64,000 nucleotides of DNA from Rhodoferax sp. (GTDB lineage Bacteria > Pseudomonadota > Gammaproteobacteria > Burkholderiales > Burkholderiaceae_C): NCBI GenBank assembly GCA_013791765.1, contig VMTC01000049.1, positions 1-64,000 on the forward strand. Direction: 5' to 3'. The notes under the pieces are model-generated. The model saw only the letters and a list, made by a program, of their open reading frames with translations, made no database searches and was not told where the DNA came from. Below, one piece after another: positions 14 through 33,202 of the stretch (positions are counted from its first letter, which is position 1; each line of letters starts with the position of its first letter). The position numbers and the translations under genes are program-made.

Positions 14-103
14 AATCAGTCGGGTGATGCGCTTTGCGCAGGTAAAGGAGGAGAACGCGCAGCGGGCGGGGGACACGTAGCAAAGCGCATCGCCCGGCTG
101 ATT
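14..103 (+). repeat. Hairpin element, copy A (conserved core, private arms)
   Basis: Two 24-base arms (14-37 and 80-103) are inverted repeats of each other with 22 of 24 positions pairing. They enclose a core that reads GCAGGTAAAGGAGGAG at its left end and GGGGGACACG at its right end. The same core occurs at about 33023-33057 (inverted) and 33143-33184, but with entirely different arms that again pair only with each other. It lies just past the 3' end of relA, so it may act as a transcription end or an mRNA-stabilising hairpin; that role is inference. Confidence 0.7.
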
Positions 104-201
104 CACCCACCATCGTGATATCAGCCCTGATCCAATAGACACACCTGAGTGCTTCGGAAAAAAATCATTCATCTGAAGCTACTTATTTTGAATCGCACCC
201 C

Positions 202-2457
202 TCAGCGCCGCCGCGCCGACTTCACGCCCGACAACTCCGCCACCACGCCCAGCACCTTGTGCAGCCGCCCGGCATCCGACACTTCCACCGTGAAGGTCAT
301 CCAGGCGATGCCCTTGATGGACTGCGTCTGCACACCCACGACGTTCATTTTTTCTTTGGTAAAGACCTCTGAAATATCGCGCAGCAGGCCTTGGCGATCG
401 ATGGCGTGCACCGCCACGTCCACCGGGTACACCGCACTTCCGCTCGATCCGGTTGCAGCCGCTGGCGCTTGGCCCCATTCCACCTCGATGACTCGCTCGC
501 CATTTTGGGCAATCATCTCGCGCAGGTTGGAGCAGTCAAAGCGGTGTACGCTGACGCCCTTGCCGCGCGTGACAAAACCACAAATTGGGTCAGGTGGGGC
601 CGGCTTGCAGCACTTGGCAAGCTGGGTCATGAGTGAATCAACACCCACTACCAGCAGCCCCCCCTTGGACGGATTGGCAGCGCTGCGCGGCTTGCGCAAA
701 AGCGGTTCTTCATCCGCCGGTTCCGGCTCGGGTGGGTGCAGCAAGGTCTCGATATTGCGCAAGGAAAATTCGTCCTTGCCGACCACTTCAAACAGGTTGT
801 CGGCCGAATTAAACCCCAACTGCGCCGCCAGGTCCTGCAATTTGAGCGCGGTCTTGCCCTCGCGCTGCAGCAGTTTCTCGACCGCCTCGCGCCCTTTGGC
901 CACGGTTTCATGCAGCGCCAGCGCATTGAACCAGGCGCGCACCTTGGACCGCGCCCGGTGGCTCACCAGGTAGCCTTGCTCGGCCATCAGCCAGTCGCGC
1001 GACGGCCCGCCCTCCTTGGCCACCGTCACCTCCACCGTCTGGCCGTTTTTGAGCGGCGTGTTCAAAGGCACCATCACGCCATCAATGCGGGCACCCCGGC
1101 AGCGGTGGCCCAGATCGGTGTGCAGGCTGTAGGCAAAATCGACGGCCGTTGCGCCTTGCGGCAACTCCACAATGGTCGCATCGGGCGTCAAGACATAAAC
1201 GCGCTCATCCAGACCGACATCCTGCGCCGCCGTACCCGAGAGGTCACGCTCCCACGCCAGCAACTGGCGCAGCACGGCAATCTTGGCGTCGTAGGCGCTG
1301 CTGGCCGATACACCGGCGTAGCCCTTGACACCGGCTTCCTTGTAGGCCCAATGGGCGGCCACACCATGCTCGGCATGGTCGTGCATGGCCTGGGTGCGAA
1401 TCTGGATCTCGATCGGCAAACCGACTGAGTCGCGCACCACCGTGTGCAAGGACTGGTAGCCATTCGCCTTGGGCTTGGCAATGTAGTCGTCAAATTCCTC
1501 AGAAATCGGCGTGAACTGGCTGTGGACCCAGCTCAAAGCGGTGTAGCAATCCGCAATGCTGTCCACCACAACGCGCAGCGCCCGAATGTCATAGACCTGG
1601 TCAAAATTGAGCGATTTGCCGCGCATCTTCTTGACGATGCTGTAGATGTGTTTGGGCCGCCCCTGCACCGTGGCGTGCATGCCCTGCGCCTTCAGGTCGG
1701 ACTCGAGCTGCAGCCGCAATTGTTCGATGTGCAATTCACGCTCGGAGCGCTTTTCGTCGAGCAGGCTGGCCACCTCGTGGTAGGTGTTGGGCTCCAGGAA
1801 ACGAAACCCCAGGTCTTCCATCTCCCACTTGATTTCCCAGATGCCCAGCCGGTTGGCCAGCGGCGCAAACACCTGCAAGGCTTCGCGCGCCACGCCCGCT
1901 GGCGCATCCTGGCGGGCCGCCACAAAAAAACGCAGCGTTTGCAGGCGCGAGGCCAGTCGCAGCATCACCACGCGCAAGTCGCGCGAGAAAGCAAGCAGCA
2001 TCTTGCGCACATTCTCGGTCTGGGCGGCCGCGGTTTGCGCCAGCGGAATGCCGGTCGCGGCGCGCTCGCTGGCCACCTGCGCCTGGCGCGCCTGGCGCTG
2101 CACCCGCACCAGTTTGGTGGTTTCAACCGCCAGCGCGGCAAAGTTGTCGCCAAAGGCTTTGGCGATCACCTCTTGCGGCTTGTTCAAGTGGTCACAGGCA
2201 TAGACGAGGTAACTGGCGGCCTGCATCGCCTCAGAACCGCCAATGGTCTTGAGAATGGCCGCGACCGCATCGGCATGGGCGAGCGTGTTTTCGCCGGTAT
2301 CGAGCGTTTCGCTGGCCAACAGCGGCTCGGCAAAGGCGCGAGCGCGCGCCAACGCATGGGGTTGCTCGGGCTGCGCCTGTGAGGTCGCCGCCAGCAACTG
2401 CGTCACTGGCTGGGCTGAAGAGGCCGAGCCCGTCGGCTCGTTAGACAGGGTTTTCAT
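202..2457 (-). CDS. relA: GTP pyrophosphokinase RelA, (p)ppGpp synthetase
   Basis: 751-residue RelA/SpoT-family enzyme that makes the alarmone (p)ppGpp from ATP and GTP/GDP on starved ribosomes. The N-terminal hydrolase-like domain (about 45-200) lacks the HD metal pair: where SpoT has HD this protein reads YACDHL. The synthetase domain carries GRPKH (about 265) and EFDD (about 319), the ExDD form typical of RelA rather than the RxKD of bifunctional SpoT. A TGS domain (about 419-480) starts with RVYVLTPDA and an ACT domain (about 676-751) closes the protein. The ATG at 2457 is preferred over the TTG two codons upstream. The gene follows an alpha/beta hydrolase by only 14 bases, so the two probably share a transcript. 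Family assignment is firm; lack of hydrolase activity is inferred from the missing HD. Confidence 0.95.
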   Translation of the reverse strand: MKTLSNEPTGSASSAQPVTQLLAATSQAQPEQPHALARARAFAEPLLASETLDTGENTLAHADAVAAILKTIGGSEAMQAASYLVYACDHLNKPQEVIAKAFGDNFAALAVETTKLVRVQRQARQAQVASERAATGIPLAQTAAAQTENVRKMLLAFSRDLRVVMLRLASRLQTLRFFVAARQDAPAGVAREALQVFAPLANRLGIWEIKWEMEDLGFRFLEPNTYHEVASLLDEKRSERELHIEQLRLQLESDLKAQGMHATVQGRPKHIYSIVKKMRGKSLNFDQVYDIRALRVVVDSIADCYTALSWVHSQFTPISEEFDDYIAKPKANGYQSLHTVVRDSVGLPIEIQIRTQAMHDHAEHGVAAHWAYKEAGVKGYAGVSASSAYDAKIAVLRQLLAWERDLSGTAAQDVGLDERVYVLTPDATIVELPQGATAVDFAYSLHTDLGHRCRGARIDGVMVPLNTPLKNGQTVEVTVAKEGGPSRDWLMAEQGYLVSHRARSKVRAWFNALALHETVAKGREAVEKLLQREGKTALKLQDLAAQLGFNSADNLFEVVGKDEFSLRNIETLLHPPEPEPADEEPLLRKPRSAANPSKGGLLVVGVDSLMTQLAKCCKPAPPDPICGFVTRGKGVSVHRFDCSNLREMIAQNGERVIEVEWGQAPAAATGSSGSAVYPVDVAVHAIDRQGLLRDISEVFTKEKMNVVGVQTQSIKGIAWMTFTVEVSDAGRLHKVLGVVAELSGVKSARRR

Positions 2458-2471
2458 TTGCAAACCATCCG

Positions 2472-3371
2472 TTATTCATCCAGGAAAAAGGAGGCGACGG
2501 CTTGCACCTGGTTATCGGCGATGAAGGTCGGCGCGTGGCCCACACCGGCAAACTCCACCAACCGGGCCTTGGGGCCGCGCGCCATCATGGCTTGCGCCGT
2601 CTGGCGCGAGAGCAAATCTGACTCGGCACCGCGAATCAGCAAGGTTTTAGCCTTAATCTGGTCATAGGACTGCCACAGCAAGGCCTCCCCTTGCGCGGCA
2701 GACTCAGGCGTCACAGCCTTGAAAGGTTCCGCCAGCGCCGGGTCATAGTGCAGCGTGAGCCGACCACTGCCGTCCCCCAGCGGTTTGAGCAAGGGGCGGC
2801 TCAAAGCCAGCCATTGGGCCGGCGTGTGCGGACCAAAACTGCTGGCAATCTCCCACAGGGCATCGGCGGCCTGTTGTTCCGAGTCAAACGCACCGACATT
2901 TCCCAAATACTGGCCAATGCGTTGCAGGGCCTGCCATTCAATCACCGGGCCGACATCATTGAGCCCCAGACGACGTACTTGGGCAAAGGCGGGCGCCTGC
3001 GCCAGACCGGCCACCACGATGCCAATCAAGCCGCCCATGCTGGTACCGAGCCAGTCCAGCGTGGTGGGCTGCAATTGCGCCAACAAGGCCAGCATATCGG
3101 CTGCGTAATTTGGAATCTGGTAGCCCTGCGGGTCCTTCAGCCAATCGCTTTTGCCACGGCCCGCCACATCCGGGCACACCACGCGCAGCGTGCCTCCAGC
3201 GCGCTCGCATAGCGCCTGCGCCAGCACATCAAAGTCACGCCCCTGGCGCGTCAGGCCATGCACGCAGACCAGCACATGGCCCGCCTCGGGGTTGCCCCAT
3301 TGCCAATAGGCCATGCGATGACCACCGGCTGCGTCAGGACACAGAACGAAATTGAGAGAAGGCTCGGTCAT
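2472..3371 (-). CDS. Alpha/beta-fold hydrolase
   Basis: 299-residue cytoplasmic alpha/beta hydrolase with no signal peptide. Visible landmarks are the oxyanion-side HGLTRQGRDF near residue 40, the nucleophile elbow GTSMGG with Ser near residue 110, an acidic residue in RGAESDLLS, and the catalytic His in GVGHAPTF near residue 277. The substrate cannot be read from sequence; C-C hydrolases, esterases and haloperoxidase-like proteins share this pattern. The start at MTEPSL is chosen because the longer open frame upstream would run antisense through the 5' end of the hydroxybutyrate dehydrogenase gene and has no family-like sequence. It lies directly upstream of relA on the same strand and is divergent from hbdH. 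Confidence 0.85.
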   Translation of the reverse strand: MTEPSLNFVLCPDAAGGHRMAYWQWGNPEAGHVLVCVHGLTRQGRDFDVLAQALCERAGGTLRVVCPDVAGRGKSDWLKDPQGYQIPNYAADMLALLAQLQPTTLDWLGTSMGGLIGIVVAGLAQAPAFAQVRRLGLNDVGPVIEWQALQRIGQYLGNVGAFDSEQQAADALWEIASSFGPHTPAQWLALSRPLLKPLGDGSGRLTLHYDPALAEPFKAVTPESAAQGEALLWQSYDQIKAKTLLIRGAESDLLSRQTAQAMMARGPKARLVEFAGVGHAPTFIADNQVQAVASFFLDE

Positions 3372-3504
3372 GGTGGGGTTGAGGGTTTGATAAAGTCGCA
3401 GCGTAGTACAAGGATGCACGGGAATTGCGTCAACCCCTGTGCCCTCACAATGCCCACATCGTAATTCAATCACAGTTGACCCCAACCCCACACGGAGAAA
3501 CCTC

Positions 3505-4275
3505 ATGCTCAAAGGTAAAACAGCGCTCGTCACCGGCTCCACCAGCGGTATCGGCCTTGGCATCGCCAAAGCCCTGGCCGCCCAGGGCGCCAACATCGTG
3601 CTCAACGGCTTTGGCGACGTCGAGGGCCCCAAGGCCGAGGTCGCGGCGCTGGGTGTCAAGGTGGCTTACCACGGCGCCGATATGAGCCGGCCGGCCGAGA
3701 TTGAAGACATGATCAAATTCGCGCAGGCGCAGTTTGGCCAGGTCGATATTCTGGTCAACAACGCCGGCATCCAGCATGTGGCGCGGGTCGAGAACTTCCC
3801 GGTAGAGCGATGGGACGCCATCATCGCCATCAACATGAGCAGCGCTTTTCATGCCACGCGCTTAGCGCTGCCAGCGATGCAAAAGGCCAATTGGGGCCGC
3901 ATCATCAACGTCGCCTCGGTGCACGGCCTGGTCGCCTCTGCTGAAAAATCAGCTTACGTGACGGCCAAGCACGGCGTGGTCGGCCTGACCAAGGTCACCG
4001 CGCTGGAAAACGCCACCACCGGCGTCACCTGCAACGCCATTTGCCCCGGCTGGGTGCTGACGCCGCTGGTGCAGAAGCAGGTCGATGCCAAGGCTGCTGC
4101 TGGCGACATCAGCAACGCTGAAGCCACCAAACAACTGCTGAGTGAAAAAGAACCCTCGCTGCAATTTACTACCCCCGAAGAGCTGGGCGCTCTGGCCGTG
4201 TTCTTCTGCTCACCGGCGGGCAACAATGTGCGCGGCGTTGCCTGGAACATGGACGGCGGCTGGGTGGCTCAGTAG
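3505..4275 (+). CDS. hbdH: D-3-hydroxybutyrate dehydrogenase (SDR family)
   Basis: 256-residue short-chain dehydrogenase, the usual length for NAD-dependent 3-hydroxybutyrate dehydrogenase, which oxidises D-3-hydroxybutyrate to acetoacetate during PHB or ketone-body use. The Rossmann motif TGSTSGIG follows the N terminus, NNAG appears near residue 88, and the catalytic Ser (NVASVHG), Tyr and Lys (YVTAKHG, about 151-155) are present. The C-terminal region FFCSPAGNNVRGVAWNMDGG matches the family. A GGAGAAA ribosome-binding site sits 5 bases before the ATG at 3505, which rules out the longer N-terminal extension. A PHB-depolymerase-type esterase elsewhere in the window (49.4-50.4 kb) supports PHB metabolism in this organism. 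Confidence 0.92.
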   Translation: MLKGKTALVTGSTSGIGLGIAKALAAQGANIVLNGFGDVEGPKAEVAALGVKVAYHGADMSRPAEIEDMIKFAQAQFGQVDILVNNAGIQHVARVENFPVERWDAIIAINMSSAFHATRLALPAMQKANWGRIINVASVHGLVASAEKSAYVTAKHGVVGLTKVTALENATTGVTCNAICPGWVLTPLVQKQVDAKAAAGDISNAEATKQLLSEKEPSLQFTTPEELGALAVFFCSPAGNNVRGVAWNMDGGWVAQ

Positions 4276-4279
4276 CGCT

Positions 4280-4343
4280 ATATTAATAGTAGCGTATTAC
4301 CAATACAAGACGCGGGCCAGAGGCTGATTTTGTATAAATTTAT
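4280..4343 (+). repeat. About 60-bp interspersed repeat, copy 1
   Basis: AT-rich ends (TTAATAGTAGCG at the left, TTTTGTATAAATTT at the right) flank a GC-rich centre GCGGGCCAGAGGCTG. It fills the gap between the convergent hbdH and tsaD genes. Related copies are at 12203, 14501, 35755, 45857, 49311, 50583 and 61446. Confidence 0.75.
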
Positions 4344-4351
4344 GAGCAATT

Positions 4352-5428
4352 TCAACTTGCCACCGGCAGATCGGCCAGCGGCCAGCGTGGCCTGACGTCA
4401 AAGGCATAGACATGGGTGGCGGCTTGCTGGCCGGACTGCAGACGCATGGCAGCGGCCATGGCGATCATGGCGCCGTTGTCGGTGCACAGATGCAACTCGG
4501 GGTAATGCACGCGCACGCCGCGCTGGGCGCACGCCGCATTGAGCTGCGCGCGCAAGCTGCGGTTGGCGCCGACACCGCCGGCCACCACCAAACGCTTGAG
4601 ATCGGTTTGACTTAAAGCGGCCAGTGACTTCTTCACCAGCACCTCCACAATGGCGGCCTGGGTGGAGGCCGCCAGGTCAGCCAGCACCTGCACCGGCAAG
4701 GCCTCGACCGCAACGCCTGCGACCAGCGCGAGCTTTTTGGCCTGCACCATCACCGCCGTTTTCAGACCGGCAAAAGAAAAATCAAGATTGCCGCTTTTCA
4801 GCAAGGGGCGCGGCAACTTGAATTCGCTTGGGTCCCCCTGCTCTGCCAGTTTCGATAGTGCCGGGCCACCCGGGTAGCCCAGACCCAGCAGCTTGGCCGA
4901 CTTGTCAAAGGCCTCGCCGGCGGCGTCATCAATCGTCTCGCCGAGCAGCTCGTAACGCCCGACCCCATCCACCCGCATCAACTGCGTGTGCCCGCCCGAC
5001 ACCAGCAGCGCCACAAACGGGAATTCGGGTGGATCCGCGCTCAAGAAGGGCGACAGCAAATGCCCTTCGAGATGGTGCATGCCGAGCACTGGCTTGCCCA
5101 GGGCCGCGGCCAGTGCGCAGGCCACGCCCGCGCCCACCAGCAAGGCGCCGGCCAGTCCCGGGCCCCGCGTGAACGCGACCACGTCGACATCTGCCAGGGT
5201 TCGTCCCGAAGCAGCCAAAACCTGCTCAGTCAGAGGCAGCACGCGGCGAATGTGGTCGCGGCTGGCCAGCTCGGGCACCACGCCGCCGTAGGCCTGGTGC
5301 ATCTCAATCTGGCTGTACAGCGCATCGGCCAGCAGCAGCGGCAAGGCCTCGCCCTGCACCTGCACCAACGCCACGCCGGTTTCGTCACACGAGGACTCGA
5401 TTCCCAACACGCAGTAGTCTTTTGCCAT
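4352..5428 (-). CDS. tsaD: tRNA N6-threonylcarbamoyladenosine transferase TsaD
   Basis: 358-residue Kae1/TsaD/Gcp protein that transfers the threonylcarbamoyl group to A37 of ANN-decoding tRNAs, with TsaB and TsaE. The N terminus [14 protein letters not shown] is the family signature. The metal-binding motif HHLEGH appears near residue 112-117, and the ASKHA nucleotide-binding pieces [18 protein letters not shown] and [13 protein letters not shown] follow in order. The ATG at 5428 (MAKDYCVLG) is chosen over a codon eight residues upstream because it matches the usual start. It is convergent with hbdH, with an interspersed repeat just past its stop codon. Identification is very secure. Confidence 0.96.
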
Positions 5429-5501
5429 AGCCGGCGAGTTTAGGGGATACACGCCAGCGCATGAACGGGCTCGATTGAGCTCACCGCACGCCGTGGCCGA
5501 C

Positions 5502-6128
5502 TTAACGCCGCACCGTCAACCCTAAGCCGGTCAGATAGGCCCCGATACTCACTTCGGCAACTTTCACCAGCGCAAACGCCTGCGGTGCCAGCAACCAGGT
5601 GTGGATCAGACCGACCACCAGCGCATGCAGGCCCTGCGCCGCCATCAAGGGCGAGATCGGCAAAATCACGGCTTGGCGCGTACTCGTGTCCTGCAGGCTG
5701 AGCGCCATGCGTTGCACCGCCTCGGTTTGGGTCTGCAACTGGCGCGCCTTGACCGCCAACAGCTCATCAACGTACTCCACCTTCAGCGTGGCGACCTCAA
5801 AAACGCGGCGTGTGCGCTCGTCCGAGGAAATTTTGCGCATCGCATCCACAATGGCGTGCTGCAGAGCGTCAAGCGGATCGCGCCCGTCATCTGCGCCAAT
5901 GCTCTGCAGCGTGGTCTCCATCGGCAGCGTGATGCGCGCCATCATGGCGTTGAACAAATCCGCCTTGTTCTTGAAATGCCAGTAAATGGCGCCCCGACTC
6001 ACGCCCGCCGCTTCGGCAATGGCTTGCAAGGAAGTGCGCGACACCCCTTGTTCATAAAACACCCGCTCGGCCGCATCGAGCAATTGCTCATGCGTGGCGA
6101 AAGCTTCTTCTTTGGTGCAACGGGCCAT
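5502..6128 (-). CDS. TetR/AcrR-family repressor of the adjacent RND efflux operon
   Basis: 208-residue TetR-family regulator. The N-terminal DNA-binding domain carries the helix-turn-helix [20 protein letters not shown] at about residues 34-53; the C-terminal helical domain resembles AcrR/TtgR ligand-binding domains in length and spacing. It is transcribed divergently from a complete RND efflux operon, and a 24-base AcrR-like operator lies between them (6172-6195). The expected role is repression of the pump operon and of itself, relieved by a hydrophobic ligand. Function is inferred from family and context; the ligand is unknown. Confidence 0.9.
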
Positions 6129-6171
6129 GGCGAAAAATCAACTCCTGAAGGTTGGGAAACACCCATTGTAT

Positions 6172-6195
6172 TTTATACATTCAAGCATGTATGTA
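6172..6195. promoter_or_regulatory. AcrR/TtgR-like operator
   Basis: Read on the minus strand the site begins TACATACAT and continues through TTGAATGTAT, matching 19 of 24 positions of the E. coli AcrR operator as I recall it. It is the only strong palindrome in the 143-base gap between the divergent TetR gene and the efflux adaptor gene, so it is well placed to control both promoters. Confidence 0.65.
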
Positions 6196-6271
6196 TAATT
6201 CCTGAAAATAATTCTTGTGTCAATATTGCGCCATCACGCGCTTTGTCGCCCTTCTTTTTCGGAAACACACC

Positions 6272-7501
6272 ATGCTTGAAACCTTTGCCAGGCCATCGAT
6301 CCGCGCACCCCAATTGCAGCTTTTTAGCACCCTCGCATTAAGCGCCTTGCTAGTCGCGTGCGGCCAGGGCAACGCCCCGCCCGCAGGCCCCGGTGGTCCG
6401 GGCGGCGCAGCGCCAGCGGCCGAGGTCGGCGTGATCATCGTCAAGCCGGGCGATGTCGGTTTGGTGACGGAACTGCCAGGCCGGTTGGAGGCCTCACGCG
6501 TGGCCCAGGTGCGGGCGCGGGTGGCGGGCATTTTGCAGAAACGCCGCTTTGTGGAGGGCAGCGAGGTCAAGGCCGGGCAAGCCTTGTTTGACATCGACGC
6601 CGGCCCGTACCAGGCCGTCTTTGCCAGCGCCCAGGCGCAGCAGGCCAAGGCCGAAGCCAACCTGATGCAAGCCAGTGCGCAGGCTGAGCGCTTCAAACCG
6701 CTGATCGAAGCCAAGGCCATCAGCCAGCAAGAGTTTGTTAGCGCCCAGGCGGCGCAAAAGCAGGCCGAGGCCGACGTCGCCATGGGCAAAGCGGCGGTGC
6801 AAAGCGCGCGCATCAATCTGGGTTACGCAACGATCACCGCACCCATTTCCGGCCACATTGGCCGCGCTTTGGTGACTGAAGGCGCCCTGGTGGGCCAGGG
6901 TGAAGCAACGCAACTGGCGTTAATTCAGCAGATTGATCCCCTGTATGTCAACTTCACCCAATCGGCCTCCGAGGTGATGCAGCTGCGCCGCGCCATGGAG
7001 GCCGGTCAGCTCAAACGCGCCGGCAGCAAAGCCGCCAGCGTGCGCGTGGTGCTGGAAGACGGCACCGAGTACGCGCGTGCCGGCAAGCTGCTGTTCTCGG
7101 ACCTGACGGTGGACGCCAGCAGCGGCCAGATCACCTTGCGGGCCGAGGTGCCCAACCCGGGCGGCACGCTGCTACCCGGCCTGTTTGTGCGCGTGCGACT
7201 GGAACAAGCCCAGGCCAGCAACGCCATCACACTGCCGCAGCAGGCAGTGACGCGTTCGCCCCAGGGCGACTCGGTCATGGTGGTGGCGGCCGACGGCAAG
7301 GTGGCGCCGCGCCCGGTGAAGGTGGGCGGTCAGCAAAATGGCCAGTGGGTGATCCTGGACGGCCTCAAGGCCGGTGAGCAGGTGATGGTGGACGGCTTCC
7401 AGAAGCTGCGCGGGGGTGCGCCGGTCAAGGCGGTACCGTGGCAGGCACCGGGCAGCGCGCCCGCCACAGCGGCCAGCCCCGCCGCAAGCGCTGCACGCTA
7501 A
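6272..7501 (+). CDS. RND efflux periplasmic adaptor lipoprotein (AcrA/MexA type)
   Basis: 409-residue membrane fusion protein of a tripartite RND pump. The N terminus has a basic-hydrophobic stretch followed by the lipobox LVAC (Cys near residue 29) and a Gly/Pro-rich linker. The lipoyl-like half-motifs, a coiled-coil hairpin with heptad-like AQAQQAKAEANL and AQAAQKQAEADVA segments (about 115-185), and the beta-barrel domain (LYVNFTQSASEV) follow in standard order. The ATG at 6272 is preferred because it places the lipobox at the usual distance. It is the first gene of a three-gene operon, 12 bases before the pump gene, and is probably repressed by the divergent TetR protein. Confidence 0.93.
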   Translation: MLETFARPSIRAPQLQLFSTLALSALLVACGQGNAPPAGPGGPGGAAPAAEVGVIIVKPGDVGLVTELPGRLEASRVAQVRARVAGILQKRRFVEGSEVKAGQALFDIDAGPYQAVFASAQAQQAKAEANLMQASAQAERFKPLIEAKAISQQEFVSAQAAQKQAEADVAMGKAAVQSARINLGYATITAPISGHIGRALVTEGALVGQGEATQLALIQQIDPLYVNFTQSASEVMQLRRAMEAGQLKRAGSKAASVRVVLEDGTEYARAGKLLFSDLTVDASSGQITLRAEVPNPGGTLLPGLFVRVRLEQAQASNAITLPQQAVTRSPQGDSVMVVAADGKVAPRPVKVGGQQNGQWVILDGLKAGEQVMVDGFQKLRGGAPVKAVPWQAPGSAPATAASPAASAAR

Positions 7502-7513
7502 GGAGCCCCCTTC

Positions 7514-12161: not shown

Positions 12162-12202
12162 CTCGGTCGTTCGCGTCGCTTGCTTGGCGCAGGTTTCTAC
12201 TG

Positions 12203-15181: not shown

Positions 15182-15213
15182 AGGTGTTGTCTCAATTTCC
15201 AAGTGAATTCAAA

Positions 15214-17034
<1,821 letters not shown>

Positions 17035-22610: not shown

Positions 22611-22653
22611 CGTGGTGGACAAATCAGATTTTCTTCAACTGTCGGGTATTATT

Positions 22654-22696
22654 GCAATTGAGTTGCGTTAGACTATAGCGCAATTGAGTTGCATTA
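22654..22696. promoter_or_regulatory. Two tandem Zur-type operator boxes
   Basis: GCAATTGAGTTGCGTTA (22654-22670) and GCAATTGAGTTGCATTA (22680-22696) are near-identical 17-base boxes starting exactly 26 bases apart. Each contains the inverted repeat GCAA-N5-TTGC. They lie in the 121-base gap between zur and the zinc importer operon and should control both directions. Confidence 0.75.
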
Positions 22697-22731
22697 TCGC
22701 TGCAATCCCCATCTTTCGAATTAGCAAAAAA

Positions 22732-22920
22732 ATGTCACACCCAACGCATGAGCACAACCACCCGAACGCCCCTGCGCCGCACCCCACACGGCCCCACCAG
22801 CCACGCAGCGTGCTGGCCTGGCCGGCTTGGCTGCGCGTGCTGGCGGTGTTGCCGCTGCTGCTGACCCTGTGGCTGGCAGTGTGGTGGGCCAATGCCGGGG
22901 CGGGAGCGGTGCCGTGGTAA
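22732..22920 (+). CDS. Small His-rich N-terminal, single-span membrane protein of the zinc operon
   Basis: 62 residues: MSHPTHEHNHPNAPAP, then a Pro/Arg stretch, then one membrane helix (about 33-55, VLAVLPLLLTLWLAVWW). Four His in the first 11 residues could bind zinc or nickel. It is the first gene after the Zur boxes and its stop overlaps the znuC start (TAATG), so coupling to the importer is likely. I do not recognise a named family. It could be an accessory subunit or a leader that couples translation of znuC. Confidence 0.6.
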   Translation: MSHPTHEHNHPNAPAPHPTRPHQPRSVLAWPAWLRVLAVLPLLLTLWLAVWWANAGAGAVPW

Positions 22921-24532: not shown

Positions 24533-24569
24533 GTTGATCCATTTTCTTGACACAACTGAAAACCAATTC

Positions 24570-25481: not shown

Positions 25482-25670
25482 CGGGTGCAGCTCGGTTCCA
25501 GCCAAAATGGCTTGATATGCAACAAGGTCGGCATGACTTGCACCTGACAGGCCGCCAAATGGCTTTACCATGATTGCAGTCGTTGGCCGACTCTGGCCGA
25601 CTCACTGGCGCCCTGGCAAGTCAATCAACCCGTGTCGCCAGGTTGGCCCACTGAAAGCAAGGCATCTGAT

Positions 25671-27167
25671 ATGAACACCGCCGAATGGATTTCCCGCAAC
25701 GTCGCCAAGTTGCTGCCGGCCGCAAATTCAATCGAAAAAATGGCCACAACCCCGATAGCAAATGCGCGAGCCGCTGTGAGTCTTGCGCCTGCTCCGGCCC
25801 CGACCGGCCCCATCGCCAGCGCGACTTCCCGCTCCTTGCCTGAGCGTCTGGCAGGCAGCTTGCGCCACAAAGACGAGGCGCTGTCACCGCGCCTGCTGCG
25901 TCGCATCTTGACTGAACTGCAGGCCATCCTGGACAACCAGGTCAGCGAGGTCGAAGGTGGCCGACGCGCCAGCGAGTTCGCCCAGTGGTATGGCGCCGCC
26001 TTGCCGGCGCAACGGCGCGACTGTTGGCTGCTGATGAGCGAGCAGTTTGCCCCTGACCCCGACCTGATCGAGGCCGCGCGCAGCCACTACACGGCGGCCC
26101 AAAATACCCTTGATGCCGGGCAAGCCGAAATCCGCTTGCGCCAGGCCTTGGTGTCACCGCGCAGCCGTCTGTTGCAGCGCTTTGCGGCCTTCCCCGAGGG
26201 CATGCAATTTTTGCTTGACTTGCGCACTGACTTGCTGGCTCACCTGAAAAGCGAAAAGCGCCTGCTGGCGCTGGACGGCGAGCTCGAACACTTGTTCTCT
26301 GGCTGGTTTGATGTGGCCTTTTTGGAGTTGCGCCGCATCAGCTGGGACTCCCCCGCCTCGCTGATCGAAAAACTGATCAAGTACGAAGCGGTGCATGACA
26401 TTCGTGACTGGAATGACGTCAAGAACCGGCTGGATGCGGACCGCCGCTGTTATGGCTTCTTCCATCCGCAGCTGCCCAATGAACCTTTGATCTTTGTCGA
26501 GGTGGCGCTGCTTGACAAACTGCCTTGCGCCATATCGCCCTTGCTCGACGAAGCGGCCGCGCCCGCGGACCTGAGCAAAGCGAGCACCGCCATTTTTTAC
26601 TCGATCAGCAGCACCCAGAGCGGTCTGCGCGGCGTGAGCTTTGGCGACTCGCTGATCAAACGCGTGGTGGAGACCCTCAAGGTCGAGTTTCCCCGCCTGC
26701 GCACTTTCGCCACCCTGTCGCCGATACCGGGATTTCGCAGCTGGCTAGGCAAGAACGCGAGCGCCATGCTGGCTCGGCTTGATGTAAAAGCCCGTGCTGC
26801 GCTGGCCAGCGCGGTCGGCGCTGAGCCCATCACGCCGGCCCACTTGCTGACAGCGGCCGAACAGGCGCAAACGCTCGACGCCCAGTCGCCGCTGCGCCAT
26901 TTCTTGATGCAATGCGCCGCCCATTACCTGGGCCGAGAGCTGGTGCAGGGCAAGCCGCTGGACCCGGTCACGCGCTTTCATTTGGGCAATGGCGCCCGGA
27001 TTGAGCGGCTGAACTGGGGCGGCGATTTCTCCAGCAAAGGCGTCAAGCAGTCCTACGGCATGATGGTCAATTACCTGTATGACCTGAAACGCCTGGACCG
27101 GTACCGGGCGCAGTTTGCCAACAGCAAACTGGCGGTTTCAAGCGAAATTGAGACGCTGGGCTTTTGA
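25671..27167 (+). CDS. Malonyl-CoA decarboxylase
   Basis: 498-residue MCD-family enzyme (malonyl-CoA to acetyl-CoA and CO2). The N-terminal helical domain is followed by the acetyltransferase-like catalytic domain. Signatures are FHPQLPNEPLIFVEVAL (about 265-281), FYSISSTQSGLRGVSFG, the catalytic Ser-His region ATLSPIPGFRSWL, and FHLGNGARIERLNWGGD near the C terminus. No partner malonyl-CoA synthetase or transporter is adjacent in this window, although this gene is often next to one. The first 50 residues are Ala/Pro-rich and may be a linker. Start ATG 25671 has no strong ribosome site. Confidence 0.92.
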   Translation: MNTAEWISRNVAKLLPAANSIEKMATTPIANARAAVSLAPAPAPTGPIASATSRSLPERLAGSLRHKDEALSPRLLRRILTELQAILDNQVSEVEGGRRASEFAQWYGAALPAQRRDCWLLMSEQFAPDPDLIEAARSHYTAAQNTLDAGQAEIRLRQALVSPRSRLLQRFAAFPEGMQFLLDLRTDLLAHLKSEKRLLALDGELEHLFSGWFDVAFLELRRISWDSPASLIEKLIKYEAVHDIRDWNDVKNRLDADRRCYGFFHPQLPNEPLIFVEVALLDKLPCAISPLLDEAAAPADLSKASTAIFYSISSTQSGLRGVSFGDSLIKRVVETLKVEFPRLRTFATLSPIPGFRSWLGKNASAMLARLDVKARAALASAVGAEPITPAHLLTAAEQAQTLDAQSPLRHFLMQCAAHYLGRELVQGKPLDPVTRFHLGNGARIERLNWGGDFSSKGVKQSYGMMVNYLYDLKRLDRYRAQFANSKLAVSSEIETLGF

Positions 27168-27264
27168 GCGAATTAGGGGCGTTCCCCTTCGAGCCACACG
27201 ATTTCTGAAGGCGCACGCAGGCATACTGCCAGGTTTAGCGCAAGCGCCCACACAAGGAATAAAA

Positions 27265-27465
27265 ATGACCATTTGCCCCATCGCCATCGCCGTCGGCTGT
27301 AAAAAATGCCCGATCTTCAAAGTCTGCCCGGTCAAGTCCGTGATCGGTGACGTGCCCAAGGCCGGGGCCAAGCCAGCTGCCAAGGTAGTGGCCAAGTCAG
27401 TAGCCAAACCGGCAGCCAAAGTAGTCGCCAAGTCAGCACCAGCGCGCAAAAAAACCAGGAAATAA
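27265..27465 (+). CDS. Small four-cysteine protein with Lys/Ala-rich tail
   Basis: 66 residues. The N-terminal third, CPIAIAVGCKKCPIFKVCP, has four cysteines at 4, 12, 15 and 21, a likely zinc or iron-sulfur knuckle. The rest is a basic repeat with two copies of PAAKVVAKS and ends RKKTRK, like histone-H1 or AlgP tails. A clear ribosome site AAGGAA lies 6 bases before the ATG. It is tucked between malonyl-CoA decarboxylase and dapC. I do not recognise a named family. It may bind DNA, RNA or polyphosphate through the tail; that is inference. Confidence 0.7.
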   Translation: MTICPIAIAVGCKKCPIFKVCPVKSVIGDVPKAGAKPAAKVVAKSVAKPAAKVVAKSAPARKKTRK

Positions 27466-27535
27466 GCCGCTCTTGCGGCGCCAGTTGATGCTCTGGTGGG
27501 CAGGCGTGCACATCAGGCACCGATAATCGCTGCCC

Positions 27536-28765
27536 ATGAATCCACTGCTCGCCCTTTTGCAGCCCTACCCCTTTGAGCGGCTGCGCCAACTTCTCTCCAG
27601 CGTGACACCCAATCCGGCACTGCGGCCGATCAGCCTCGGGCTAGGGGAACCCAAACACGCCACCCCTGCCTTCATTCAACAAGCCATGATCGAGGCCATT
27701 GGGCGCACGCCCAGCGGCCTGGCCAGCTACCCGGCCACCCAGGGCGAGCCCGCGCTGCGCGAAGCTTTTGCTAAATGGCTTAAAAGGCGCTACGACATCG
27801 ACGTTGACCCGGCCACGCAAATGCTGCCGGTCAATGGCTCGCGCGAGGCGCTGTTCGCCCTGACCCAGGCCGTTGTCAACCCCGGAGCAAAGCAGCTCAG
27901 TGGTGAAAAGCCGCTGGTGGTCTGCCCCAATCCTTTTTACCAAATCTACGAAGGCGCCACGCTGCTGGCCGGGGCCGAGCCCTACTACGTGGCGAGCGAC
28001 CCGGCGCGCAACTTTGCCCCCGACTGGGCCAGCGTGCCCGCAGCAGTATGGGCGCGCACCCAGCTGCTGATCGTCTGCTCGCCCGGCAACCCGACCGGCG
28101 CGGTGATGCCCTTGTCCGAATGGCAACTGCTGTTCGAGCTGAGCGACCAGCATGGTTTTGTCATCGGCTCCGACGAGTGCTACAGCGAGATCTATTTCCG
28201 CGACGACGCCCAGGGTGGGCCGCCGCTGGGCGGCATGGAGGCCGCGGCCAAACTTGGCCGCCTGGACTTCAAGAACCTGATTTCGCTCACCAGCCTGTCC
28301 AAGCGCAGCAATGTGCCGGGTATGCGCAGTGGTTTTGTCGCTGGCGACGCCGCCCTCATCGCGCAATTTCTGCTCTACCGCACCTACCACGGCTGCGCCA
28401 TGAGCCCGGTGGTGCAGGCCGCCAGCCTGGCCGCCTGGCGCGACGAGCAGCACGTGGTGGAAAACCGCGCGCTGTACCGCAGCAAATTCGCTCAGGTCAC
28501 ACCGATCCTGGCCGAAGTGCTGGACGTGGCGCTGCCCGATGCAGGCTTTTATTTGTGGGCCAAAGTCAAGGGCAATGACACCGACTTTGCCCGCGACTTG
28601 TTCGCTCTTTACAATGTGACGGTTTTACCCGGCTCCTATGTGGCGCGTGAGTTCCACTGCAGCAATCCCGGCGCCGGTCGAATTCGCATGGCGCTGGTGG
28701 CTGAAACGGCCGAATGTGTGCAAGCGGCCCAGCGCATCGCGCAATTTGTCAAATCCAGAAACTGA
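27536..28765 (+). CDS. dapC: Succinyldiaminopimelate transaminase
   Basis: 409-residue class I/II aminotransferase acting in lysine and peptidoglycan precursor synthesis (N-succinyl-2-amino-6-ketopimelate to N-succinyl-LL-DAP). Starts [20 protein letters not shown], as in betaproteobacterial DapC. PLP-binding features: NPGNPTGAV region ([10 protein letters not shown], about 180), DECYSEIYF, and [15 protein letters not shown] with the Schiff-base Lys. It is followed by dapD after 35 bases and heads the dapC-dapD-pilU-dapE-prmB cluster. Confidence 0.93.
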
Positions 28766-28800
28766 AACCCCAGCGGTTTCGCCTCCCGAGAACAACTTTC

Positions 28801-29625
28801 ATGACGCAACAACTGCAATCCATCATTGACGCCGCCTGGGAAGACCGCGCCAATTTATCGCCCAGCGCAGCCCCCAAAGAAGTGCTCGATGCGGTCGAGC
28901 ACGTTATTTCTGACCTCAATTGCGGGCGCCTGCGTGTGGCCACGCGTGAAGGCGTGGGCCAGTGGACCACGCACCAGTGGATCAAGAAGGCCGTGCTGCT
29001 GAGCTTCAGACTCACCGACAACCAGGTGATGAAAGCCGGTGATCTGGGTTTCTATGACAAGGTGCCGACCAAATTTGCCGGCATGGACGAAGAAGCATTC
29101 AGGGCCTCGGGCGTGCGCATCGTGCCACCCGCCGTGGCGCGGCGCGGCAGCTTTGTGGCCAAGGGCGTGATCCTGATGCCCTCCTACGTCAACATCGGCG
29201 CCTACGTGGATGAAGGCACGATGGTTGACACCTGGGCCACGGTGGGCTCCTGTGCGCAGATCGGCAAGCACGTGCATTTGAGCGGTGGTGTCGGCATTGG
29301 CGGCGTGCTCGAGCCGATGCAGGCCGGCCCGACCATCATTGAGGACAACTGCTTCATCGGCGCGCGCTCCGAAGTGGTCGAAGGCGTGATCGTGGAAGAA
29401 AACTCCGTCATCTCGATGGGCGTTTACCTCGGGCAAAGCACCCCCATTTACGACCGCGCAACCGATACCGTCAGCTATGGCCGCATTCCCAGTGGCTCGG
29501 TCGTCATCAGTGGCAGCCTGCCCAAGAACGAGGGCAAATACAGCCTGTACGCGGCCATCATCGTGAAGCGCGTGGATGCGCAAACGCGATCCAAGACCAG
29601 CTTGAACGACTTGCTGCGCGACTGA
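28801..29625 (+). CDS. dapD: Tetrahydrodipicolinate N-succinyltransferase
   Basis: 274-residue left-handed beta-helix transferase that succinylates tetrahydrodipicolinate with succinyl-CoA. Hexapeptide repeats run through the middle ([39 protein letters not shown]), followed by [19 protein letters not shown] and the C-terminal [17 protein letters not shown]. The ATG at 28801 matches known DapD starts ([14 protein letters not shown]). Second gene in the dap operon. Confidence 0.96.
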
Positions 29626-29665
29626 TTGTCTAGCGCCAGTCACGCCAAATTACCCGGGTTTCAGC

Positions 29666-30862
29666 ATGGCAACCACTGCAGCAAGCGCGACCAAGGCCAC
29701 GCCGGGCACCTCCGGCACGATGGAGCGCATTCTTCGCCTGATGAGCGAGAAGAAGGCCTCCGACGTTTATCTGTCCGCCCACTCACCGGCGCTGATCCGC
29801 ATCAACGGCCAGTGCGTGCCGATCAACAACCAGCAACTGCCGCCCGAGGCGCCGCGCAATTTGCTGGCGGAGATTTTGCCGCCCAACCGCATCGAAGAGC
29901 TGGAAGAGCTCAACGAGCTCAACATGGGTTGGTCAATGGCGGGCGTGGGCCGCTTTCGCATCAGCGCGATGCGCCAGCGCGGCTCGATTGCGGCGGTGAT
30001 TCGCTACATCTCGGTCGACATCCCGCCGCTCGACACCTTGGGCGTGCCGATGATCCTGAGTCAGCTGATCATGGAAAAACGCGGCCTGCTGCTGATGGTA
30101 GGCGCCACCGGCGCGGGCAAAAGCACCACCATGGCCGCCATCATTGACCATCGCAATGCCAATGCCACTGGCCACATCCTGACAATTGAAGACCCGCTGG
30201 AGTATTTGTTCCGCAACAAGCGCTCGGTGGTGAATCAGCGCGAGGTCGGCACCGACACCCAATCGACCCACACCGCGCTGAAGAACGCCCTGCGCCAGGC
30301 CCCGGACGTGATCATGATTGGCGAAATCCGCGACCGTGAAACCATGTCGGCAGCGATTGCCTACGCCCAGACCGGCCATTTGTGTCTGGCCACCCTGCAC
30401 GCCAACAACAGCGCCCAGGCGCTCAACCGGATTCTGAGTTTCTACCCGGTCGAGGTGCGCGAAACCATGCTGGCCGACCTGTCGGCCGCGCTCAAGGCGA
30501 TTGTGTCGCAGCGACTCTTGCGCACCACGGGCGGCGGGCGCATCCCGGCAGTCGAGATCATGCTCAACACCAACCTGGTGGCCGAAATGATTGGAAATGG
30601 CGATTTTTCCGGCGTCAAGGAGGCCATGGAGAAGTCAATGGCCGAGGGCGGCCAGACTTTTGAGCAAGACATCGCGCGCCTGATCATGGACGGCGTGGTG
30701 GACCGCAAGGAAGGGCTGCTCAACTCGGACTCCCCCACCAATTTGATGTGGCGCCTGCAAAACGACTTCAACGCCCGGACACAAGCGCCCGTGGACACCG
30801 AAGACCCGGATGATCACCCCTCTTTCACCGAAATCACGCTCGACGTGATGCACGGCTCCTGA
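29666..30862 (+). CDS. pilU: PilT/PilU-family type IV pilus retraction ATPase
   Basis: 398-residue secretion ATPase. After an Ala/Thr-rich start come the PilU-like [20 protein letters not shown], Walker [10 protein letters not shown] (about 145-153), the Asp box [12 protein letters not shown], Walker B IMIGEIRD and the His box [12 protein letters not shown]. The insert [17 protein letters not shown] and the acidic C-terminal tail favour PilU over PilT. Its place between dapD and dapE, with gaps of 40 and 13 bases, is unusual: no other pilus gene is in the window. It may be co-transcribed with lysine genes. The subtype (PilU or PilT paralogue) is uncertain. Confidence 0.88.
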
Positions 30863-30875
30863 CCCCTCACCGCGA

Positions 30876-32057
30876 ATGCTGATGCCTAAAACCCTGCACC
30901 TGGCCGAACAACTGATCGCCCGAGCCTCACTCACGCCCGACGATGCCGGCTGCCAGCAAATCATCGCGCAGCGCCTGCGCCCACTGGGTTTCGTCTGTGA
31001 AACCATCAGCAGCGGTCCGATTAATGCGCTGGTCACTAATTTATGGGCAAAACGGGCTCCAGCCCGCGTGTATACTGAGCAATCAGCTACTAAATTGATT
31101 GTGATGGCCGGTCATACTGACGTCGTGCCAAGCGGCCCGGCGCAGCAGTGGCGCAGCCAGCCCTTCACACCGACCCAACTGGAGGGCAAGTTGTATGGCC
31201 GCGGCGCCGCCGACATGAAGACCTCGCTGGCCGCGTTCGTCGTGGCTACCGAAGAGTTCTTGGCTGCGCAGCCTGACACGCCTTTATCGATAGCATTCCT
31301 GATCACCAGTGACGAGGAAGGCCCAGCGCTGGACGGCACGCTCAAGGTCTGTGAAACGCTGCAGGCGCGCGGCGAACGCATCGACTACTGCATCGTCGGT
31401 GAGCCCACCTCTTTGGCGCGCACCGGCGACATGATCAAGAATGGCCGGCGCGGCACGCTCAGCGCACGCTTGACGGTCAAAGGCGTGCAAGGCCACATCG
31501 CCTACCCGCACCTGGCGAAAAACCCGATCCATCTGGTGGCCCCGGCCTTGGCCGAGCTCGTCGGCATCGAATGGGACCACGGCAACGCCTTCTTCCAGCC
31601 CACCACCTGGCAGATCAGCAACATCCACAGCGGCACCGGCGCCAGCAATGTGATTCCGGGTGCGGTGGTGATTGACTTCAACTTCCGTTTTTCCACCGAG
31701 TCCACCCCCGAGTCGCTGCAGACCCGGTTGGCCGCCGTGCTGGAGCGCCACGAGCTCGATTACGACCTGGCCTGGACGCTCGGCGGCACGCCGTTCCTGA
31801 CCGAGCCCGGCACGCTGGTGGACGCGATGGTGGATGCCATCAAGCAAGAGACCGGCCTCACTACCGCGTTATCCACCACTGGCGGCACCAGCGACGGCCG
31901 CTTCATTGCCAAAATCTGCCCGCAAGTGATCGAGTTCGGCCCGCCCAACGCCAGCATCCACAAGATCGACGAACACATCAATATCGCTGACATCGAGCCT
32001 TTGAAAAACATCTATAGGCGCGTGCTGGAAAACCTGAGTGCGGGGCCAGCAGCATGA
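30876..32057 (+). CDS. dapE: Succinyl-diaminopimelate desuccinylase with an in-frame repeat insert
   Basis: 393-residue M20 metallopeptidase that releases LL-DAP from N-succinyl-LL-DAP; E. coli DapE is 375. Metal and catalytic motifs are [40 protein letters not shown] and the C-terminal HKIDEHIN. Between NLWAKR and VMAGHTD there are about nine extra residues ([14 protein letters not shown] region). The DNA here, 31038-31096, matches the interspersed repeat, so a copy seems to have been inserted in frame just before the first metal ligand. The stop overlaps prmB by 4 bases. Confidence 0.94.
31038..31096 (-). repeat. Interspersed repeat copy inserted in frame in dapE
   Basis: AATTTATGGGC, CGGGCTCCAGCCCGCGTG and ATCAGCTACTAAATT occur in the same order and spacing as in intergenic copies read in this orientation (for example the reverse of 14501-14565). 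The reading frame of dapE is kept. Confidence 0.65.
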
Positions 32058-33013
32058 CGCTGCTGGAGTTGATTGAAGCGGCCGCCGCCCAGCTCACCGA
32101 GGCCGGTGTGGCCTTTGGCCACGGCACCACCAACGCCTTTGACGAAGCCGCGTGGCTGGTGCTGTGGCAGCTCGGGCTGCCGCTCGACACGCCACTCGAT
32201 GGCGCAACCGATGAAGCGGAATTTATAGCCAATCAGCCCGTAGCCCCCGCAGAACAAGCGCAAGTAGCTACGCTTTTAGCTAAAAGAATCAGCTCCCGCC
32301 AGCCTGGCGCCTACCTGACGAAAGAGGCCTGGCTCATGGGTGTGCCGTTCTACGTGGACGAGCGCGCCATCGTGCCACGCTCCTTGATTGCCGAGTTGCT
32401 GGTGGACGGCGCCCTGGACTACTGGCTCAGCGACGCCACGCACGCGGTGCTGGATCTGTGCAGCGGCAACGGCAGCCTGGCGGTGCTGGCCGCCATGGCC
32501 TACCCGGATGTGACGGTGGATGCCTCTGACTTGTCAAAGGACGCGCTGGCGGTGGCCCGCATCAACGTTGATAAACATGGTTTGGGCGGGCGCATCACTT
32601 TGATCGAATCGGATGGCTTTGCCAAGCTGCCGGGCCGCTACGACCTGATTTTGTGCAACCCGCCTTATGTCAACCTGCAGAGCATGGCGGCGCTGCCGCC
32701 TGAATTTCACGCCGAGCCCGCGCTGGCGCTCGATGGCAACCGCGCGGGCGGCCAGGACGGCATGGACTTCATCCGCAGGCTGCTGATGGAGGCGCCGCAG
32801 CACATGAATGAAAACGCGGTGCTGGTGCTGGAAATCGGCAACGAGCGGGCGCACTTTGAAGCGGCATTCCCCCAGTTAGCGGCGATCTGGCTGGAAACCA
32901 GCGCCGGTGAAGACCAGGTGCTGCTACTTGAGCGTGAAGAACTTTTGGCGCTATTGCGGGGGCCGAAGCCAGAGTCCTTACGTGTGCCGAAGCCAGACGG
33001 GCTGGGCGAGTGA
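32054..33013 (+). CDS. prmB: Ribosomal protein uL3 glutamine methyltransferase PrmB
   Basis: 319-residue SAM-dependent methyltransferase that modifies a glutamine of ribosomal protein uL3. The SAM motif is [16 protein letters not shown] (about 131-146), and the catalytic NPPY lies at about 201-204 ([14 protein letters not shown]). The PrmB-specific [25 protein letters not shown] precedes them. Start overlaps the dapE stop (ATGA). The last 15 or so residues ([17 protein letters not shown]) have a different character and are coded by the left arm of a hairpin element (32987-33090). A weak repeat-like stretch occurs at 32220-32285. Confidence 0.93.
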
Positions 33014-33090
33014 CTCCGTTCGTGTCCCCCGCCCGTTCCGGGCTCCTCCTTGACCTCACTACGCCACTCACCCAACCCGTCCGGCTTCTC
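32987..33090 (-). repeat. Hairpin element, copy B
   Basis: Arms of about 27 bases (from GAAGCCAGACGGGCTGGG at 32989 and its partner ending near 33090) pair with few mismatches. The core, read on the minus strand, contains GGTCAAGGAGGAGCCCGG and GGGCGGGGGACACG, the same core as copies A and C. The left arm covers the end and stop codon of prmB. Confidence 0.75.
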
Positions 33091-33124
33091 GAATGGTGGG
33101 AACATGCAACCGCCGCACAGCAGG

Positions 33125-33202
33125 AGTACGGATTGCTGTGAAGCGCAGGTCAAGGAGGAGGCCGAAGGCCGGGGGACACGGAGCTTCACAGCAATCCGTG
33201 CT
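33125..33202 (+). repeat. Hairpin element, copy C
   Basis: Arms at 33125-33144 and 33183-33202 pair over about 19 of 20 bases (ACGGATTGCTGTGAAGC and its complement). The core reads GCAGGTCAAGGAGGAGGCC, a GAA loop, then GGCCGGGGGACACGGAGC. Copy C is inverted relative to copy B, 34 bases away. It lies 56 bases before the ABC-F start. Confidence 0.8.

What the first reader, a model, noticed from the sequence alone, without database searches (positions are those of the whole stretch)
14..33202. Hairpin elements with one conserved core but private, self-complementary arms
Three copies (14-103, 32987-33090, 33125-33202) share a core of about 40 bases: GGTMAAGGAGGAG, a small inner hairpin (often with a GAA loop, GGCC-GAA-GGCC or CCCG-GAA-CGGG), then GGGGGACACG. 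The flanking arms, 20-27 bases each, are unrelated between copies yet pair with their own partner at 80-95 percent. Ordinary REP elements keep their stem sequence, so here selection or the insertion mechanism preserves pairing rather than sequence. Either the core inserts into the loops of existing hairpins (such as terminators), or it creates an inverted copy of its target. The core also carries a strong Shine-Dalgarno-like AAGGAGG in one orientation. I know of no described element of this form.
Basis: seen in the sequence. Interest (0 to 1): 0.75.

Follow-up and report, generated by a model that had tools for sequence, protein, structure and literature searches.

The report
Mobile DNA hairpins with covarying arms
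A family of roughly 90-base DNA hairpins scattered through bacteria related to Rhodoferax keeps its folded shape and a short central code while its arm sequences drift, and some copies sit in frame inside protein genes.

Summary
The three window copies belong to a repeat family: 32 exact cores in this genome, 0 for the reversed pattern, with relatives in Rhodoferax, Hydrogenophaga, Curvibacter, Methylibium and others. Each is a hairpin of about 90 bases: a 25-bp stem, a purine-rich internal loop (GGTMAAGGAGGAG / GGGGGACACG) and a small inner hairpin. Arms covary strongly (26 of 26 outer pairs with double changes). "Private" is only partly right: 21 of 27 testable own-genome copies share arms, in a ~507-bp MITE-like repeat. 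At the two sites tested, whole hairpins were gained; neither arm pre-exists beyond chance. New here: neighbouring copies are mostly divergent (23 against 2 convergent and 1 same-strand); G·T far exceeds A·C on the core strand even when antisense to genes, pointing to a folded single strand of fixed polarity, probably ssDNA; 15 of 163 copies lie in frame inside open frames (Mpl, NirB, MutL, PutA, CobB). It is probably the Beta-proteobacterial repeat element (BRE) of 2011, whose sequence I could not compare. It works like a Rickettsia palindromic element crossed with REP pairs. No mobilising enzyme was found.

The parts
12..105 (+). Hairpin copy 1 (subfamily A); core 41-77, inner hairpin CGC-GCA-GCG
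   Evidence: 80.0 bits; DNA fold z -6.0
1..200 (+). Right part of a ~507-bp MITE-like repeat that carries copy 1; right terminal repeat TTTGAATCGCACCC at 187-200; the left part lies beyond the start of the contig
32989..33088 (-). Hairpin copy 2, left member of a divergent pair; core 33021-33055 (minus strand); its outer arm overlaps the end of prmB including the stop codon
   Evidence: 66.1 bits; DNA fold z -5.7
33089..33118 (.). Spacer between the two divergent hairpins
33119..33208 (+). Hairpin copy 3, right member of the divergent pair; core 33148-33180, inner hairpin GGCC-GAA-GGCC
   Evidence: 87.0 bits; DNA fold z -7.2
32054..33013 (+). Flanking gene: prmB, ribosomal protein L3 N5-glutamine methyltransferase; its C-terminus runs into copy 2
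   Evidence: TIGR03533, 317.7 bits, cut-off 229.7
33258..35213 (+). Flanking gene: ABC-F family ATPase
   Evidence: NF000355, 385.3 bits, cut-off 380

Best explanation
The hairpins are one family of small non-autonomous mobile palindromes of Burkholderiales. What defines a copy is a folded single strand of fixed polarity, the strand that reads GGTMAAGGAGGAG: a 25-bp stem of nearly free sequence, a conserved purine-rich internal loop and a small inner hairpin usually closed by C-GNA-G. Copies are inserted whole, often as divergent pairs with about 44 bp between them, mostly between genes and sometimes in frame inside genes. After insertion the arms drift, but changes are compensated, so arms look private while pairing stays. 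Shown: the fold, covariation, strand bias, pair architecture, presence and absence of whole hairpins at two sites, in-frame copies. Inferred: that the folded strand is ssDNA, that a trans-acting enzyme recognises it, and that this recognition (with some host use or self-templated repair) keeps the pairing.
For: Family and spread. Covariation in 19 elements (two of the 21 candidates, L040 and L126, were left out before aligning): 30 pairs, 96.3% of cells paired, 28 pairs with changes on both sides, 152 double-change cells against 40.9 in shuffles and 17-34 when slid. Orthologues between carboxylase subunits (11 of 13 rows, two of another register left out): 12 of 24 pairs with double changes, 500 shuffles mean 6.2, maximum 10. 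Fixed strand: in 52 elements with dissimilar arms G·T exceeds A·C in 43, the reverse in 2, tie in 7; the excess also holds where the core strand is antisense to both flanking genes (pairs 47:5 and 55:12, singles 38:7, loci L001-L028 and in-ORF copies left out), and at the carboxylase site (26 G·T against 3 A·C cells, my count from the table). Purine-purine mismatches exceed pyrimidine-pyrimidine ones (70:25). Inner loops are C(GCA)G in 23 and C(GAA)G in 13 of 67 distinct inner sequences. Pairs. Whole hairpins present or absent. In-frame copies.
Against: No mobilising enzyme was found: of 32 fetched loci around Y1 transposase genes (about 1.5 kb each side at most), two of them in the own genome, 31 carry no core-like hairpin and one (L242) a weak, chance-like one. 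Target-site duplications were not examined systematically. Selection on a transposition signal alone does not readily explain why old copies at fixed sites go on covarying; a host function or hairpin-templated correction may be needed. At a second orthologous site (8 of 9 rows) the number of double-change pairs, 7, was reached by shuffles (maximum 7), though double-change cells, 14, were not (maximum 10). The energy tables used here do not rank GNA triloops above others. Covariation counts sequences, not independent events. The order-wide scan found the family in only 12 of 300 genomes.
Confidence: 0.58

Rival explanations
1. RNA element: the hairpins work in transcripts (3' ends, intercistronic stabilisers or processing sites, as REP does in malE-malF, recalled). 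A divergent pair gives every traversing transcript one hairpin in its core orientation near the 3' side.
For: Copies recur between cistrons: of 163 elements 13 lie between carboxylase subunit genes and 9 between a sugar-binding protein and its permease. Covariation passes through G·T, as G·U would in RNA. The strand bias is somewhat stronger in sense copies (64:5, 44:5, 33:1) than in antisense ones (47:5, 55:12, 38:7). The BRE-containing bprJ region of Bordetella pertussis is transcribed (PMC3110155, passages read).
Against: Antisense hairpins keep the same direction of bias. Single intergenic copies outside the own genome lie sense 14 and antisense 17 times between co-directional genes. 3 of 15 in-ORF copies are antisense to their gene. 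Inner loops are mostly triloops rather than the usual RNA tetraloops (the expectation is recalled). No Rfam family reaches its cut-off in the window.
Confidence: 0.25
2. Mutational upkeep: template switching within the hairpin during replication (quasi-palindrome correction) makes imperfect arms perfect, so pairing is preserved without selection.
For: Would explain continued covariation at old fixed sites and inside a gene (Mpl arms differ in all three filled loci yet pair).
Against: Does not by itself predict the strand bias of remaining mismatches (43 against 2), the conserved core, or the 25-bp edge.
Confidence: 0.2
3. REPIN/BIME moved by a RAYT (Y1) transposase.
For: Inverted pairs, mostly extragenic, ssDNA-like hairpin; 53 of 60 genus genomes have a Y1 match.
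Against: No core beside the two own Y1 genes, and only one weak core-like hit in 32 Y1 loci; stems are 25 bp and nearly sequence-free instead of 5-13 bp and conserved (PMC3733652, passages read); genomes with exact cores but no Y1 match exist (G053, 86% complete; G054, 98% complete).
Confidence: 0.12
4. One reading: the core inserts in loops of existing hairpins, or makes an inverted copy of its target.
For: About 4 bases at the outer end of the Mpl left stem belong to host sequence (CTGGGYGG, coding Leu-Gly) that is also seen in some empty loci.
Against: Arms match empty sites no better than shuffled arms do: at most 18 of 25 in 27 prmB loci and 19 of 25 in 30 Mpl loci, shuffles 17-20; arms are shared between paralogues at unrelated sites.
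Confidence: 0.04

Closest known systems
BRE, Beta-proteobacterial repeat element (Hot et al. 2011, PMC3110155; section 14 read whole, other passages seen)
   Same: About 90 bp; Bordetella, Polaromonas (29), Delftia (13), Rhodoferax ferrireducens (4), Azoarcus and others; GC-rich; mostly intergenic, some overlapping ORF ends, some entirely within coding sequence; possible past mobility.
   Different: In the text read it is a sequence repeat, in part tandem in Bordetella; no hairpin, covariation, strand bias, divergent pairing or reading frame is given there. Its sequence is in a figure and a supplement that I could not read.
Rickettsia palindromic elements (RPE; Ogata et al. 2000/2002, known here from passages of review PMC10969869 and recall)
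   Same: Small palindromes (~150 bp) that sit in frame inside unrelated metabolic genes, adding a peptide.
   Different: No sequence relation tested; here a fixed core with nearly free covarying arms, divergent pairs, and hosts outside Rickettsia.
REP / BIME / REPIN (PMC3733652 passages read; others seen as listings)
   Same: Small palindromes, inverted dimers of unlike members, mostly extragenic.
   Different: REP stems are 5-13 bp and sequence-defined with GTAG or CGTC tags; here 25 bp, sequence nearly free, no link to a Y1 transposase found.
Integron attC sites (recalled)
   Same: Recombination sites recognised as a folded single strand, with structure kept over sequence.
   Different: Conserved parts lie at the ends in attC and in the middle here; no integrase search was made.

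Membership tests
BRE (Beta-proteobacterial repeat element) | ~90-bp repeat unit | tested here: met
   99 model hits in 67 loci, 81-112 bases long
BRE (Beta-proteobacterial repeat element) | BRE nucleotide sequence | not testable with these tools
   Figure 6 and supplement not readable; the core strings searched for are not in the main text
BRE (Beta-proteobacterial repeat element) | Found in Comamonadaceae and Rhodocyclaceae, intergenic and within coding sequence | tested here: met
BRE (Beta-proteobacterial repeat element) | Tandem copies with few bases between them at some Bordetella loci | tested here: inconclusive
   In 67 loci: 23 divergent, 2 convergent and 1 tandem neighbour (L121, gap 3, weak hit); no Bordetella genome was knowingly examined
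REP/REPIN with RAYT | Association with a Y1 transposase gene | tested here: not met
   32 Y1 loci, one weak core-like hit (L242), no clear core
REP/REPIN with RAYT | Short, sequence-conserved stem | tested here: not met
   25-bp stem, 26 of 26 outer pairs vary on both sides
Rickettsia palindromic element-like | In-frame copies inside unrelated protein genes | tested here: met
   15 of 163 inside open frames, in Mpl, NirB, MutL, PutA, CobB, error-prone DNA polymerase and others
Rickettsia palindromic element-like | Sequence relation to RPE | not tested
   No RPE sequence was compared
Known RNA family (Rfam) | Match above gathering score | tested here: not met
   0 matches in the window; permissive search gave three microRNA models below cut-off, best 30.8 bits against 100

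The most novel reading that the evidence does not exclude
A class of mobile DNA defined by shape rather than by sequence ends: a folded single strand of one polarity, measured by a 25-bp stem and marked by a purine-rich internal loop, is copied by an unknown trans-acting enzyme as single or divergent paired hairpins into spacers and, in frame, into metabolic genes, with self-templated repair or recognition keeping free-sequence arms paired over genus-level time.
Probability: 0.3. Interest if true: 0.85.

Novelty: new variant of a known kind. Interest (0 to 1): 0.62.

Why it matters
It shows a DNA repeat that evolves like a structured RNA (compensatory changes through G·T) yet with a strand bias that ignores gene orientation, which makes ssDNA folding in cells testable by comparison. 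It also extends in-frame selfish palindromes, known mainly from Rickettsia, to beta-proteobacteria with cultured species, and may give the little-studied BRE repeats a structure.

Tried and rejected
Terminators: no T-run seen after the arms in the printed flanks and no fixed gene orientation. Rfam: nothing at the gathering scores in the window; a permissive search of 32940-33240 gave three microRNA models, the best at E 0.0008 with 30.8 bits against a cut-off of 100. RAYT/Y1: searched in the own genome and in 100 genomes; one weak core-like hit in 32 fetched loci. Triloop energies: ViennaRNA DNA and RNA tables do not distinguish GNA loops. Own NirB copy as a clean empty-site test: relatives lack 168-180 bp, more than the hairpin, so boundaries stay unclear. 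Plasmid and phage collections: only 29-base core matches in two Variovorax records, none in phages. Literature: the core strings and the peptide were not found in relevant papers of the held library (no paper, ten unrelated ones); BRE turned up through the listing. The order-wide model scan scored only 14 candidates per genome with stricter filters, so its counts are lower bounds.
Full report
Check of the observation. The pattern with both halves of the core occurs 3 times in the window and 0 times in 100 shuffles. The own genome (4.17 Mb) has 32 exact copies, and 0 of the reversed control pattern. In 100 genomes searched, the own one included, 40 have a match; by genus 2 of 41. With a covariance model, 12 of 300 genomes of the order have a match at E up to 0.001.

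Anatomy. From the loci fetched by then I took 163 distinct elements with an exact core and at least 35 bases on both sides. The arms pair: 127 of 163 have at least 18 of 22 Watson-Crick pairs, against 8 of 163 after swapping partners between elements; some of those 8 are expected because subfamilies share arms. In 23 dissimilar elements of the commonest register, 25 positions pair at 0.70-1.0, the next four at 0.48-0.57 and those beyond at 0.13-0.43. The inner hairpin also varies: 67 distinct inner sequences, with loop C(GCA)G in 23 and C(GAA)G in 13.

Arms are covarying, not strictly private. In a gapless alignment of 19 elements less than 86% alike (one register, one inner length; two of 21 candidates, L040 and L126, left out) the hairpin has 96.3% of cells paired (shuffles 68.5%), 28 of 30 pairs with changes on both sides and 152 double-change cells (shuffles 40.9; slid partners 17-34). 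Seven of the 19 are orthologues from the carboxylase site. Yet arms are shared within subfamilies. In the own genome 21 of 27 testable copies match one arm sequence; many of these sit in a repeat unit running from -346 to about +162 around the core start, with internal deletions in some copies, and the left end of that unit has 41 matches in the genome. The unit has terminal inverted repeats GGGTGCGATTCA.../...TGAATCGCACCC, and in L014 the letters GTTGCA stand outside both ends, so it looks like a MITE. Window copy 14-103 is one of these. Between 22 dissimilar arms of one register a weak consensus remains, above all G at -18 in 21.

Which strand folds. Mismatches in the arms are strongly asymmetric. 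In 52 elements with arms less than 70% alike, G·T on the core strand exceeds A·C in 43, the reverse in 2, with 7 ties; totals 104 to 15; purine-purine 70 against pyrimidine-pyrimidine 25. If the fold served the mRNA, copies antisense to the operon should show the opposite bias. They do not: in pairs, focal hairpin antisense 47:5, partner antisense 55:12; single copies antisense 38:7 (L001-L028 and in-ORF copies left out). Sense copies have somewhat higher ratios (64:5, 44:5, 33:1). Among 11 orthologous elements between carboxylase subunit genes, where the core strand is antisense, 12 of 24 pairs have double changes (500 shuffles: mean 6.2, maximum 10) and the 25-pair table holds 26 G·T and 3 A·C cells (the cell counts are mine). 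At the sugar-transporter site (8 rows, mostly sense) 7 pairs have double changes, a number that shuffles reach (maximum 7), with 14 double-change cells against a maximum of 10. Only 9 of the dissimilar elements are antisense and intergenic (8 with G·T in excess, 1 against), so this subset is small. The core strands of the three window copies also fold better than their complements as DNA (-28.3 against -22.0, -31.4 against -22.0, -25.9 against -21.3 kcal/mol). A single strand of fixed polarity, whatever the gene orientation, points to ssDNA; the GNA triloops fit this (such DNA mini-hairpins are known as extraordinarily stable; papers seen only as a search listing, otherwise recalled). The ViennaRNA tables give no such bonus.

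Pairs. In 163 elements a second, often degenerate core with paired arms lies upstream on the other strand 63 times, 52 of them at a core-to-core gap of 80-124 bases; 2 lie downstream on the other strand; 4 same-strand neighbours were found; 201 control windows gave 10 hits. The covariance model, applied to 67 of the fetched loci, gives 99 hits with 23 divergent, 2 convergent and 1 same-strand neighbour within 300 bases; 8 of the 23 divergent spacers are 43-44 bp. The window pair 32989-33088 and 33119-33208 is one such pair. The same arrangement appears in genomes of other families of the order, where by eye the core reads more generally RRTMAARGRGGAG...GGRGGACAYK.

Sites. Gene calls here come from a simple home-made hexamer caller. 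Intergenic copies with two called neighbours lie in ++ 46, -- 40, +- 25, -+ 14 contexts, so divergent promoters are rarer and orientation to transcripts is otherwise about even. Some sites recur: 13 elements lie between carboxylase subunit genes and 9 between genes resembling a sugar-binding protein and its permease (the last two matched below the cut-offs of the named families). The window site is occupied in few relatives: of 30 prmB loci fetched (50 of 60 genus genomes had the gene), the pair is present in 3 (own, G047, G044) and absent from 27; no arm is found in the 27 (best 18 of 25). In the own genome the prmB stop codon lies in the outer arm.

Copies inside genes. 15 of 163 elements lie inside open frames. 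All 15 have core lengths of 37 (14) or 46 (1), equal modulo 3; among similar-armed intergenic copies 18 of 29 share that class (Fisher p = 0.008; frame-breaking insertions would have been missed, so the test is biased in favour). The usual frame reads [SF]AQVKEEPAQRAGDTE, but another frame and, in 3 of 15, the antisense strand also occur. Hosts include Mpl, NirB, MutL, error-prone DNA polymerase, PutA, CobB and a large helicase. Two of the 15 (L102, L134) lie at gene starts and are less certain. For Mpl, three filled loci (Hydrogenophaga pseudoflava L066, Rhodoferax bucti L133, bin L082) can be set against 30 genus loci without a core: the hairpin lies in a loop of variable length between VSARLG and FVIEADEYD, adds 84-99 bases in frame over the shortest loci, and its arms differ in all three yet pair. 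Host CTGGGYGG, coding Leu-Gly, supplies about 4 bases at the outer end of the left stem; otherwise the arms match the empty loci no better than shuffled arms. So a whole hairpin was gained, perhaps with microhomology at one end; I cannot tell one ancestral insertion with later losses from repeated insertion at one site.

What it works like, and what it is. It works like a Rickettsia palindromic element (in-frame palindromes) combined with the inverted dimers of REP elements. Membership in REPIN/RAYT is not met: the stem is long and nearly sequence-free, and none of 32 fetched Y1 loci carries a clear core. The probable identity is BRE of Hot et al. 2011 (PMC3110155; I read section 14 and passages): ~90 bp, overlapping taxa, intergenic and intragenic, function unknown there.

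Mechanism. Most likely: a trans-acting enzyme recognises the folded core strand and inserts whole hairpins, single or paired. That old copies keep covarying suggests continuing recognition, a host use, or hairpin-templated correction; I cannot separate these. No enzyme was found. Confidence 0.58 for the whole account; the family, fold, covariation and strand bias themselves are much firmer.

Noticed in passing
window 1-200; loci L001-L028, L335-L364: A MITE-like repeat of about 507 bp (terminal repeats GGGTGCGATTCA/TGAATCGCACCC) with 41 left-end matches in the genome carries the hairpin core; several assembly contigs begin or end in it.
   Followed up: partly
L014 and kin, about 180-290 bases before the core: The MITE holds a second long hairpin (GGGCYATGCGCATGCGGTTTTGGGGTG... 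/ CACCCCAAAGCCCGGTCGCATAGCCC, by eye) with a different inner sequence.
   Followed up: no
L305-L311 (Mpl gene, same loop): Seven genus genomes carry other in-frame extra stretches of 12-56 codons, without the core, at the loop of Mpl where the hairpin sits elsewhere; a spot where in-frame insertions seem tolerated.
   Followed up: no
L188, L190, L195, L210, L213 (prmB downstream region): Relatives without the pair often carry a different repeat-like stretch there (TCATTGCGGGC...GACCCGCAATCC, GGATC...GTCCGGGATGACAA).
   Followed up: no
search of 100 genomes: 53 of 60 genomes of the genus have a Y1 transposase-like match, often a single protein of about 240 aa, as a domesticated RAYT might be; no clear core lies beside the ones fetched.
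   Followed up: partly
L063, 7368-7413: One IMG/VR viral contig carries a copy with pairing arms near the end of the fetched stretch.
   Followed up: no
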